Position numbers and translations under genes: made by a program
Assembly (NCBI RefSeq): GCF_003568865.1
Contig: NZ_CP031115.1
Location: 1,736,001-1,800,000 of the forward strand
Length of the DNA: 64,000 nucleotides
Direction: 5' to 3'
Source of the DNA: Rubrobacter indicoceani
GTDB lineage: Bacteria; Actinomycetota; Rubrobacteria; Rubrobacterales; Rubrobacteraceae
Notes under the pieces: generated by a model
Told to the model about the DNA's origin: nothing
Database searches by the model: none
Seen by the model: the letters and a program-made list of their open reading frames with translations, nothing else
Part shown: positions 22,637 to 50,989 of the stretch, one piece after another
Numbering within the stretch: the stretch's first letter is position 1
Layout of the letters: the number at the start of each line of letters is the position of its first letter

Positions 22637-22726
22637 CGGAATGCGGGGGGATCGAACCACCACGGACGCGACCGCGCCCGCAAGCTGGTTTTGAAGACCA
22701 GCCGGGCCACCAGGCCCACGCATTCC
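22637..22726 (-). tRNA. selC: Selenocysteine tRNA (anticodon UCA)
   Basis: About 90 nt on the minus strand. The acceptor stem has 8 bp (GGAATGCG at 22719-22726 with CGCATTCC at 22638-22645), one more than ordinary tRNAs. The D arm is GGGCC-TGGT-GGCCC. The anticodon arm is CTGGT-CTTCAAA-ACCAG, giving TCA, which reads UGA. A long variable arm is built from GGGCGCG...CGCGTCC, and the T loop is TTCGATC. The discriminator is G and CCA is not encoded. One T-stem pair appears mismatched. Together with the adjacent selB and selA this is tRNA-Sec rather than an opal suppressor. It lies between selB and moaC. Confidence 0.95.
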
Positions 22727-22770
22727 ACAAGTCCAGACAGCGAAATTCTACAGCCTGCGCCCCCCGACGT

Positions 22771-24627
22771 TCATCCGGTGCGGTGACGCCGCGTAAGAAC
22801 CCGCACATCGCCCGTCCGGACGGTAACGCCCGCGGCGTCGGCGTACTCCAGCCATGCCTGAGAGAATTTCCGGGAAGTCCCGATGCGGTCCCGAAACCCC
22901 GCTAGTGAGATCTCCCCCTCCGAGTTGCACGCGTCCTTTATCGTATCGAGCACGGAATCTGCGGCTTCGCGGGAGCCGAACAGCCCGCCGCCCATCGCGA
23001 CCGCCTCGCCGCGTTTCACAAGCAGCCGCAGCGCGGAGGACATCTGGAGCGTCGGCGGTTCGCCCCCGGCGGCCCTCAGCTTTCCGAGCAGTTCTTCGGC
23101 CTCGGCCTCGAGTTCCGGGGGGACTTCGTCCGCGCCGCGCACCCGCACCCCCGACTCGGAGACAACGACGGCCTCGCCGTCGAGCTCCGCAAGAAGCGCG
23201 TCCGCGAGGCGAGCCCCGACCCCGCTTGCGACCCGCGCCCCGGCGACGGAGAGTTCCGGGTTCTCCGGGCTGGATTTCGCCCGGTCTTCCAGAGCGCCAA
23301 GGAGGCGTTTCCTTGCTCGCTTGACGACCGCCTTCTCCGCGAAAACCTCTCCGATGGTCGTGATCTCCCCAAGAGACTTCACGGCCTCCGAGACGGCCTC
23401 GACGCTTGACGAGGTTACGAGGGCGAGCTCATCCACCCCGAGACCGGAGTCCGGGTTTCCAGCGATGGCGAGCGGGATGATCTCCTGCAAGTCCCCGCTT
23501 TCAAGGGCGATAAGCCACTCCCGATCGGGGCCGCGTCCGCGCGCGGCGAGGTCGAGCACCGTCCCGCCCCCGATGGTGACGCTCGGGGTCAGCGAGCGTA
23601 TAACGAACCGGTCCCCCGGCAGCACTACAAGCGTCTCGTCGAGCCGGAGACGGGCGAGCGCGTCGCCGCCGGGCGGGATTTCTTCCCCCTCACCGAGCCG
23701 GACGCGAGCGTTTACGTCGCGTGTGCCGTGGTGCAGGCGCACGAGCGTGCCGTGGCGCAGGGGTTTCGCCGACGCCAGCACCCCGAGCCGAACGTCCACC
23801 TGCCGCGCGGGTTCTACGGGCCGCGAGAGCAGGACATCGCCCGGCTCGATCTCCGCTGCTTCTACCCCGACGACATCCAGAGCCGTCCTCGCCCCGGCGC
23901 GGGCGACGGGCGACGGGCGACCGTGGTTCTGCACCCCGCGCACCCTCGGACGCTTCCCGGAGGCGGTGTAGAGCGTGTCGCCGGGGCGCACCTCGCCGTT
24001 CCACAGCGTCCCCGTAACAACCACCCCGATGCCGCGCAGAACAAACGACCGGTCAACCGGAAGCCGCGCAAGGTCGCCCCCGCTCCGGGCGTTCCGGTCG
24101 GTGCCCGCAAGCAAGTCCAGCGCCCCGAGAAGCTCCGGCACGCCCTCCCCCGTAGCGCCGCTGACCGGATATACCTCCGCCGCCACCCCGACCGATTCAA
24201 GGAGTTCCTCCACGTCCAGAACCGCGAGTTCGACCATCTCATCGTCCACCATGTCGGTCTTTGTCAGGGCGACGACGCCGCGCTCGACACCGAGGACGCG
24301 CAGGATGTCGAGGTGTTCGCGGGTCTGGGGCATCACCCCGTCGTCGGCGGCCACGACGAGCAGGAAGGCGTCGACGCCGCTTGAACCCGCCACCATGTTC
24401 TTGACGAACCGCTCGTGTCCCGGCACGTCTATAAGGCTCGCCCGGCGGCCTCCGGGCAAGGTGAGTTCGGCGTAGCCCGGTACGATGGAGATGCCCCGGC
24501 GGTGTTCCTCTTCGAGGCGGTCGGTGTCCGTTCCGGTCATGTAGCGGACAAGGGTGGTCTTGCCGTGATCCACGTGCCCCGCCGTCCCGATGGTGAGCGA
24601 GATCGGCGAACCCGGCGCCTCAGCCAT
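22771..24627 (-). CDS. selB: Selenocysteine-specific elongation factor
   Basis: A 618-residue translational GTPase that delivers Sec-tRNA-Sec to the ribosome at UGA codons followed by a SECIS hairpin. G domain at residues 10-170: GHVDHGKTT (17-25), DVPGHE (67-72), TKTD (122-125). EF-Tu-like domains 2 and 3 follow to about 340. The C-terminal half is made of winged-helix repeats that bind the SECIS RNA, ending in [20 protein letters not shown]. The gene overlaps selA by 8 nt and is followed by the tRNA-Sec gene. Confidence 0.96.
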
Positions 24628-26008
24628 CCGCCGCCCCGAAGAACTGCTGGAAGGCCGCGACTATACGCCCTTCGTCGCCCGGCAGCAGGGTCCGAGCGTC
24701 GAGCAGAAGCGAGCCGTTGTAGACCCGCCCGACAACCGGAACCCTGGCGCGACGCAGCCCCCGGGCGAGCGTGTCCGCGTCCGTACCCCCGACCCGGACG
24801 GCCGCCGAAAGAACCTCGAAGTTCGGGAGCGTCCCGCCGCCGCTTCTTGCCACCGAACCGACGACCTCGAAGGCGAGCGGTCCGGGCGATGCCTCCCGGA
24901 GCCTTTCGGCCAGGGACCCGGCCCGCGCCCCTACGACCTCGGCGCTCTCGTTCAGCATCCGCTGGGTCGGGAGTTCTTCGGCGGCTGTTCCATCCAGATA
25001 AGATTTCAGGGTCGCCTCCAGAGCGGCGAGGCAGAGCTTGTCGGCGCGCAGGGCTCGGGTCAGGGGATGGGATCTCATCTTCCGGATAAGGCGCTTTTTC
25101 CCGACGATGATCCCGGCCTGCGGTCCGCCGAGAAGCTTGTCGCCGGAGAAGATAACGAGGTCGGCCCCGTCTTTTACGGCTTCGGTGATGCGCGGCTCGT
25201 CTGCGAGCGGGAGCATCGCGCCGCTGCCCACGTCGGCGATAACGGTCTGGCCGAGCGTGCAGAGTTCTTTTACCCCGACCGATTCCGTAAACCCCACGAC
25301 CTCGAAGTTGGACGGATGCACCCAGAGTACGGCCCGGGTCGCATCGTTTATCGCCTGGTCGTAGTCCGCGAGGCGGGTCCGGTTTGTAGTGCCGACCTCA
25401 CGCAGCGTTGCGCCGGAGACTTCAAGGACTTCGGGAATTCTGAAGCCGCCCCCGATTTCGATAAGCTGACCCCGCGAGACTATTACCTCGGAACCCGGCT
25501 CACCGTCAACGGCCGCAGCGAGCGCGAGCAAGGTCGCCCCGGCGCAGTTGTTGACGACAAGCGCGTCTTCGGCCCCGGTAAGCTCGGTGAGAAGCGGGAC
25601 GGCGTGGTCGTAGCGGCTCCCGCGCCGCCCGGCCGGTACGCTGTACTCAAGGTTCGAGTACCCCGTTGCAGCCTCGAAAACGGCCTCGACGGCCTTTTCG
25701 GAGAGAACGGAGCGACCGAGGTTTGTGTGCAGTATGACCCCGGTTGCGTTTACGACGCGCCGGAGGCCGCGCCCTTCAAGCGAGTTTCCCGCGAGCAAGA
25801 CGATGTTCTCGATGGAGAGGTCGGGGATGCACCCGGCGAAGATAGCGTCTCTTGTCTCCCCGAGGGCGCTGCGCACGGCCCCGGTCACGGAAACGGCACC
25901 GTAACGTTCGAGCAGCGGCGAGGCCGACGAAGATCTAAGCACGGCATCCACAGCCGGGAGCCGCCTCAGGGCCTCGCCGCTTCCGTTGTATGGTTTCGGG
26001 CTTTCCAT
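24620..26008 (-). CDS. selA: L-seryl-tRNA(Sec) selenium transferase
   Basis: A 462-residue PLP enzyme that converts Ser-tRNA-Sec to Sec-tRNA-Sec with selenophosphate. NATGVILHTNLGRS at 87-100 and VVNNCAGA at 151-157 are family signatures, and the PLP lysine is K291 in IFSGDKLLGGPQAG. Start ATG at 26008. First gene of the selA-selB-selC unit; the substrate selenophosphate comes from SelD, encoded about 24 kb away. Confidence 0.96.
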   Translation of the reverse strand: MESPKPYNGSGEALRRLPAVDAVLRSSSASPLLERYGAVSVTGAVRSALGETRDAIFAGCIPDLSIENIVLLAGNSLEGRGLRRVVNATGVILHTNLGRSVLSEKAVEAVFEAATGYSNLEYSVPAGRRGSRYDHAVPLLTELTGAEDALVVNNCAGATLLALAAAVDGEPGSEVIVSRGQLIEIGGGFRIPEVLEVSGATLREVGTTNRTRLADYDQAINDATRAVLWVHPSNFEVVGFTESVGVKELCTLGQTVIADVGSGAMLPLADEPRITEAVKDGADLVIFSGDKLLGGPQAGIIVGKKRLIRKMRSHPLTRALRADKLCLAALEATLKSYLDGTAAEELPTQRMLNESAEVVGARAGSLAERLREASPGPLAFEVVGSVARSGGGTLPNFEVLSAAVRVGGTDADTLARGLRRARVPVVGRVYNGSLLLDARTLLPGDEGRIVAAFQQFFGAADG

Positions 26009-49906: not shown

Positions 49907-49933
49907 CGGGTGCCAACCTATATAATCCTCTCC

Positions 49934-50989
49934 ATGAACGAAAAAGGCGACACACGCGAGAAGATCCGGCTCACCCAGTATTCCTCCAAGGCGGGTTGAG
50001 CCTCCAAGCTGGCTCCGGGGGTCCTGGAGCAGGTACTCGAAGATCTGAAATCCGGCTCCCCGTCGGTCGGCGGCGCGATGAGCAGCATGGACACGCGCGA
50101 CGACGCGGGTTACATCCCGTTCGCGGGGGGTCTGATGCTGCAGTCGGTGGACTTTTTCCCGCCCATCGTTGACGACCCGTTCCGCTTCGGGCAGATCGCC
50201 GCCGCCAACGCTCTCTCGGACATCTACGCGATGGGCGGCGAGCCTCTCACCGCCATGAACCTTGTCGGGTTCCCGGCGAAGATGGACCTCGGCGTGCTGC
50301 GCGACATCCTCGCGGGTGGTCTCTCCAAGGTCGAAGAGTCCGGCGCGAAGCTCTGTGGCGGCCACTCCGTCGAGGACTCCGAGCCGAAGTACGGCCTCTC
50401 GGTTACGGGCTTTGTCTCGAATGAGAACCTGGTCAGGAACGCCGGAGCCAGACCAGGCGATGCGCTTGTCCTGACCAAGCCCGTCGGCTTCGGGATACTC
50501 ACGACCGCCGTGAAGCGCGGCCTCGTTACGGAAGACGACATCGAGGGCGCGATAGACTCCGCCGCGACGCTGAACTCCGCGGCATCCGGGGCGATGAGCA
50601 GGGTCGGTGGAGTATCGGCGGCGACGGACGTTACGGGCTTCGGTCTGGCCGGTCATCTCTCGGAGGTCACGCGGGCGAGCGGGGTCGGCGCGGTCGTGAA
50701 GCTCGGGGAGCTCCCGGTGTTCGACCGCGCCGCGAAGCTAGCCTCGGGGGGCTGCTATCCGGGCGGCCTCGTAAACAACCGGGAGTACCTCGGCGGCTAC
50801 GTCAACCTCGACGGCGTTTCGGACGCAGACGCGCTTGCGTTCTTTGACCCGCAGACAAGCGGCGGCCTGCTGCTCGCGGTTACTGCGGACAGGGCCGGGG
50901 ACTACCTCTCCGCCCTGACGGCGAGCGGTGTTTCGGGCGCGGTGATCGGGGAGATCGTGGAAGGCAACGGCATCACCCTCCTCCCCTGA
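49934..50989 (+). CDS. selD: Selenide, water dikinase (SelD), itself a selenoprotein
   Basis: Makes selenophosphate from selenide and ATP. The full frame of 352 codons runs from ATG 49934 to 50989 and has one in-frame TGA at codon 22 (49997-49999). The protein begins with IRLTQYSSKAG-U-ASKLAPG, matching E. coli SelD around catalytic Cys17 and Lys20; here they are U22 and K25. Downstream are family sequences such as LQSVDFFPPIVDDPFRFG, ANALSDIYAMGG and GGHSVEDSEPKYG. Without recoding, the first usable start would drop the active site. A hairpin fitting a bSECIS follows the TGA, and tRNA-Sec, SelA and SelB are in the window. Confidence 0.95.
50009..50032 (+). promoter_or_regulatory. Bacterial SECIS-like hairpin in selD
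   Basis: C50009-T50010 pair with A50031-G50032, G50011 is bulged, and GCTCC (50012-50016) pairs with GGAGC (50026-50030). The apical loop GGGGGTCCT (50017-50025) contains GGT/GGU. The loop begins 18 nt after the TGA, within the spacing expected for SelB recognition. Confidence 0.75.

What the first reader, a model, noticed from the sequence alone, without database searches (positions are those of the whole stretch)
49934..50032. selD is a selenoprotein: in-frame TGA at the catalytic position
The reading frame upstream of the apparent start of SelD encodes the family's conserved N-terminus (IRLTQYSSKAG-U-ASKLAPG), with TGA exactly where other SelDs have Cys or Sec. The window also encodes tRNA-Sec, SelA and SelB. 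Standard gene calling would shorten the gene by at least 21 codons plus the active site or call it broken. Sec-containing SelD is known in some bacteria (established), but this instance is easily missed and implies self-dependence: selenophosphate synthesis needs Sec.
Basis: partly seen in the sequence, partly recalled or inferred. Interest (0 to 1): 0.72.

Follow-up and report, generated by a model that had tools for sequence, protein, structure and literature searches.

The report
Selenocysteine-containing selenophosphate synthetase (SelD)
The enzyme that activates selenium in this Rubrobacter-family bacterium is itself predicted to carry selenocysteine, written as an in-frame UGA "stop" codon and read with the help of an RNA hairpin; this is real and strictly conserved in the family, but Sec-containing SelD has been known in bacteria, including Rubrobacter, since at least 2006.

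Summary
Confirmed. Window 49934-50989 (+) is one open frame for a full-length SelD of 351 residues, interrupted only by TGA at 49997-49999 (codon 22), which aligns with E. coli Cys17. The genome has no second SelD. The window also holds selA, selB and tRNA-Sec. All 30 distinct Rubrobacteraceae selD sequences that cover the site have TGA there, so it is neither a sequencing error nor a broken gene. Just downstream (50012-50030) lies an 8-bp hairpin with a GGU loop, 20 nt after the UGA. It meets the published bacterial SECIS model, is kept in 28 of 30 family members, and is the stretch of strongest synonymous constraint in the gene. Cys-type selD genes lack such structure.

This pins the start at 49934 and predicts a leaderless selD mRNA.

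Corrections: ordinary gene calling would lose 48 codons, not about 21. "Self-dependence" is reasonable (sole SelD) but not shown to be absolute. SelD is not the only selenoprotein; two Sec-type formate dehydrogenases are encoded elsewhere.

Sound but ordinary: Zhang et al. 2006 already list SelD of Rubrobacter xylanophilus as a selenoprotein.

The parts
49934..50989 (+). selD coding sequence, 351 aa with Sec at residue 22
   Evidence: translation with TGA=U; NCBIfam TIGR00476 E 4e-105; PDB SelD matches; only SelD in the genome
49997..49999 (+). in-frame TGA = selenocysteine codon at the catalytic position (E. coli Cys17)
   Evidence: alignment with E. coli SelD; TGA in all 30 distinct family sequences covering the site; TGA/TGC/TGT only across phyla
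50012..50030 (+). bacterial SECIS hairpin: 8-bp stem GCUCCGGG/CCUGGAGC, loop GGU, 20 nt after the UGA
   Evidence: folds at -14 to -16.5 kcal/mol; all 8 pairs kept in 28 of 30 family members, loop GG[A/U/C] in all; strongest synonymous constraint in the gene; absent from Cys-type genes
49921..49926 (+). -10 promoter hexamer TATAAT ending 7 nt before the ATG; predicts a leaderless mRNA
   Evidence: -10-like hexamer at -16..-5 in 29 of 30 family loci, 0 in 2670 positions farther upstream
22637..22727 (-). tRNA-Sec (selC), anticodon UCA
   Evidence: ARAGORN; Rfam RF01852 62.9 bits, gathering 47
22771..24627 (-). selB, Sec-specific elongation factor
   Evidence: TIGR00475 322 bits, cut-off 242
24620..26008 (-). 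selA, Sec synthase
   Evidence: TIGR00474 501 bits, cut-off 268

Best explanation
selD of this Rubrobacter-family bacterium encodes a selenophosphate synthetase whose catalytic N-terminal residue is selenocysteine. Inferred mechanism: transcription from a promoter whose -10 box abuts the start codon gives a leaderless (or nearly leaderless) mRNA; the ribosome starts at 49934; at UGA codon 22 the hairpin at 50012-50030 recruits SelB with GTP and Sec-tRNA-Sec (selB, selC and selA are in the window), and Sec is inserted. SelD then makes selenophosphate from selenide and ATP, which feeds SelA for its own Sec and for at least two Sec-type formate dehydrogenases elsewhere in the genome. Shown by sequence: the frame, the conserved TGA, the hairpin and its constraint, the machinery genes, a single SelD copy, the -10 position. 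Inferred: actual Sec insertion, the leaderless start, catalytic dependence on Sec.
For: Full-length SelD match across the TGA. TGA conserved in all 30 distinct Rubrobacteraceae selD sequences that cover the site. Catalytic position is TGA, TGC or TGT only in 81 loci. The hairpin meets every constraint of the published bSECIS model (3-9 nt loop, G in the first two loop positions, 16-37 nt spacing, 4-16 bp stem, MFE at most -7.5; PMC13188914); 28 of 30 keep all 8 pairs. Synonymous constraint peaks at codons 25-32: GCT in 28 of 29 Ala codons, GGG, CTG and GAG in 30 of 30. Hairpin z-scores against synonymous shuffles: mean -2.3 in the family, -1.6 in other Sec-type selD, -0.1 in Cys-type, p about 1e-12 for Sec versus Cys (related sequences are not independent, so the p value is optimistic). 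selA, selB, tRNA-Sec present. Two formate dehydrogenases with in-frame TGA at the Sec site in the same genome.
Against: No protein or expression data. Plain dinucleotide shuffles of the single window sequence do not make the hairpin stand out (z between +0.5 and -0.8), because the region is GC-rich; the support comes from comparison. Change within stem pairs is limited to A-U/G-U exchange at one pair. The synonymous-constraint test over 7 codons is modest on its own (p 0.01).
Confidence: 0.97

Rival explanations
1. The TGA is a sequencing error or a recent nonsense mutation, and selD is a pseudogene or is truncated.
For: Plain ORF calling yields only 50078-50989.
Against: TGA at the same codon in all 30 distinct family sequences that cover the site, from many independent assemblies; coding constraint continues on both sides; hairpin constraint; the genome needs a SelD for its other Sec enzymes and has no second copy.
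Confidence: 0.01
2. Translation starts downstream of the TGA (ATG 50078) and makes a functional short SelD without the Se-binding loop.
For: An ATG exists at 50078 with 303 codons after it.
Against: The N-terminus including Lys25 (E. coli Lys20) is conserved and lies upstream of that ATG; the family-wide -10 box sits 6-9 nt before the upstream ATG; E. coli SelD is known to need Cys17 (established knowledge, not tested here).
Confidence: 0.01
3. UGA is read at this site by something other than Sec insertion (for example near-cognate Cys or Trp readthrough), so the protein carries Cys or Trp.
For: Non-Sec readthrough of UGA is reported for insect SPS1 genes (PMC4561486).
Against: A complete Sec system is encoded and the SECIS hairpin fits the SelB model; Sec-type formate dehydrogenases co-occur.
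Confidence: 0.02

Closest known systems
Sec-containing SelD of Rubrobacter xylanophilus (Zhang et al. 2006, PMC1794560)
   Same: Same family of bacteria, same enzyme, listed as a selenoprotein
   Different: Another species of the family; that paper, as far as read here, gives no SECIS or promoter detail for it
Aquifex aeolicus SelD (PDB 2yye, 2zod)
   Same: Same enzyme and catalytic loop (SGCAAK against AG-U-ASK); matched here at E 1e-61. That these entries are the Aquifex enzyme and that its natural form carries Sec is from my own knowledge
   Different: Distant phylum; the crystallised chain has Cys at the site
Escherichia coli SelD (PDB 3u0o)
   Same: Same enzyme, E 3e-68; Cys17 aligns with U22, Lys20 with Lys25
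   Different: Cys at the catalytic site and a second Cys (Cys19) that is Ser24 here
Cys-type SelD of Thermoleophilaceae (L008-L011)
   Same: 56-59% identical, same N-terminus
   Different: TGC/TGT instead of TGA and no comparable hairpin; nested inside the Rubrobacteraceae Sec-type clade, as after a Sec-to-Cys change

Membership tests
Selenide, water dikinase SelD (TIGR00476) | Full-length match above the curated cut-off | tested here: met
   351 bits against cut-off 125, profile 1-310 of 311
Selenide, water dikinase SelD (TIGR00476) | Catalytic Cys/Sec and Lys in the N-terminal loop | tested here: met
   U22 and Lys25 align with E. coli Cys17 and Lys20
Selenide, water dikinase SelD (TIGR00476) | Makes selenophosphate from selenide and ATP | not testable with these tools
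   needs an enzyme assay or complementation of an E. coli selD mutant
Bacterial selenoprotein gene | In-frame UGA at a position that is Cys in homologues | tested here: met
   TGA in 40, TGC/TGT in 41 of 81 loci
Bacterial selenoprotein gene | bSECIS hairpin: 3-9 nt loop, G in first two loop positions, 16-37 nt from UGA, 4-16 bp stem, MFE at most -7.5 | tested here: met
   loop GGU (3 nt), 20 nt spacing, 8 bp, -14 to -16.5 kcal/mol (model from PMC13188914)
Bacterial selenoprotein gene | Genome encodes SelA, SelB and tRNA-Sec | tested here: met
   all three in the window
Bacterial selenoprotein gene | Selenium present in the protein | not testable with these tools
   needs mass spectrometry or 75Se
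Leaderless mRNA | Transcription start at or within about 2 nt of the start codon | tested here: inconclusive
   -10 hexamer position fits in 29 of 30 loci, but no transcript data

The most novel reading that the evidence does not exclude
selD in Rubrobacteraceae is a leaderless selenoprotein mRNA with its UGA at nucleotides 64-66 and its SECIS at 79-97, so that initiation, SelB recruitment and Sec supply are coupled near the 5' end and the cell's only SelD is set by its own product (a selenium-sensing feedback loop).
Probability: 0.15. Interest if true: 0.45.

Novelty: new member of a known kind. Interest (0 to 1): 0.22.

Why it matters
It is a clean example of an enzyme that needs its own product to be made, with the sole SelD copy of the genome carrying Sec. 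It corrects the gene model by 48 codons including the active site. The family-wide -10 box abutting the start makes it a candidate for studying Sec recoding on leaderless mRNA. None of this changes current understanding of SelD.

Tried and rejected
Folding the single sequence against dinucleotide shuffles was uninformative and was replaced by family comparison. The idea that SelD is the only selenoprotein was rejected: two TGA-containing formate dehydrogenases exist. The idea that SelD also serves selenouridine or the selenium-dependent molybdenum hydroxylase trait found no support: no SelU (TIGR03167) match over its cut-off and no YqeB (TIGR03309) match. Naming the organism through one of its smaller contigs failed (no match). 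A paper search for leaderless selenoprotein mRNAs in bacteria found nothing relevant by title and abstract.

Full report
What was checked. The frame from ATG 49934 reads MNEKGDTREKIRLTQYSSKAG, then TGA at 49997-49999, then ASKLAPG and on to the stop at 50987-50989. The whole, read through the TGA, is SelD: TIGR00476 at 351 bits over nearly the full profile, and solved SelD structures (3u0o, 2yye) at E 3e-68 and 1e-61. Residue 22 aligns with E. coli Cys17 and Lys25 with Lys20. One figure needs correction: no in-frame start codon lies between the TGA and ATG 50078, so ordinary gene calling would lose 48 codons.

Is it chance or error? No. A scan of one-genome-per-species contigs gave 80 related loci; with the window's own copy, the codon at this place is TGA in 40, TGC in 21 and TGT in 20, and nothing else. 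In the window's own family, 33 of 39 genomes show a match to the query, and each SelD match that spans the site carries TGA (the weak, roughly 30%-identity matches in that list are more distant relatives of the fold). Thirty distinct sequences were extracted and all have it. The window's genome has one SelD only. The window also holds selA, selB and tRNA-Sec.

The SECIS. Twenty nucleotides after the UGA, at 50012-50030, lies GCUCCGGG-GGU-CCUGGAGC, an 8-bp stem with a 3-nt loop that begins GG. This meets every limit of the published bacterial SECIS model as given in PMC13188914. All eight pairs stand in 28 of 30 family sequences, and the loop is GGA, GGU or GGC in all; apart from single outliers, the only exchange within a pair is A-U against G-U. 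The codons that make the hairpin are the most constrained synonymously in the gene: the best window of seven scored codons is 25-32, with GCT in 28 of 29 Ala codons and GGG, CTG and GAG in 30 of 30. Against shuffles that keep the protein, the region after the codon folds at mean z -2.3 in the family and -1.6 in other Sec-type genes, but -0.1 in 41 Cys-type genes (Sec against Cys p about 1e-12; relatedness makes this p value optimistic). The single-sequence fold alone would not have shown this.

The start. In 29 of 30 family loci a -10-like hexamer (TATAAT, TATACT or a close variant) lies within 16 nt of the start codon, its end 6-9 nt before it in nearly all; the same motif occurs at 0 of 2670 positions farther upstream. 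In the window it is 49921-49926, seven nucleotides before 49934. This fixes the start and suggests a leaderless mRNA. Several other genes of the window show a similar arrangement, selA among them, so this may be common in the organism. No transcript data are at hand.

What SelD serves. Two formate dehydrogenase genes of the same genome carry one in-frame TGA at the Sec site (contig 1, 144604-146193 and 155201-155953), each followed by a sequence that folds at -15 to -17 kcal/mol. SelU and YqeB were not found. So selenophosphate here most likely goes to Sec alone: to SelD itself and to at least these two enzymes. That remark is inference.

Evolution. A tree of 104 SelD proteins needs five Sec/Cys changes. 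Thermoleophilaceae Cys-type SelD fall inside the Rubrobacteraceae Sec-type clade with fair but not full support, which suggests a Sec-to-Cys change, perhaps after transfer. Sec-to-Cys changes in SelD are already described (PMC1794560).

Known or new. Zhang et al. 2006 list Rubrobacter xylanophilus with five selenoproteins and name SelD among those lost in its sisters. Mariotti et al. 2015 report that 19% of SelD genes in their prokaryote reference set carry Sec, always at this position, and that a bacterial SECIS was recovered from them (PMC4561486). The present case is a further member. What may be unreported is the family-wide promoter position; paper searches found nothing relevant on it.

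Noticed in passing
window 26008 (-) and upstream: selA also has a TATACT hexamer about 9 nt before its ATG, so the selA-selB-selC cluster may start from a leaderless or nearly leaderless mRNA too; 58355 (-) and 27893 (-) look alike.
   Followed up: partly
window 22637-22727 (-): tRNA-Sec: between the T loop and the likely G73 there are 12 nucleotides, which fits the unusual 12-bp acceptor/T stem reported for Rubrobacter xylanophilus (PMC5330540) instead of the usual 13 bp; no CCA is encoded.
   Followed up: partly
G012, G022, G018 (same family): Genomes with high completeness estimates have tRNA-Sec-like matches (over the cut-off in G012 and G022) and TGA-containing formate dehydrogenase matches but no SelD match over the family cut-off. 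Assembly gaps are the likely cause, as G020 and G026 hold only 5' fragments of selD.
   Followed up: partly
L008-L011 (Thermoleophilaceae): Cys-type SelD nested inside the Rubrobacteraceae Sec-type clade: a likely Sec-to-Cys change with loss of the hairpin.
   Followed up: partly
L108 (G006): A second in-frame TGA near the start of selD, probably an assembly error or mutation in this one draft genome.
   Followed up: no
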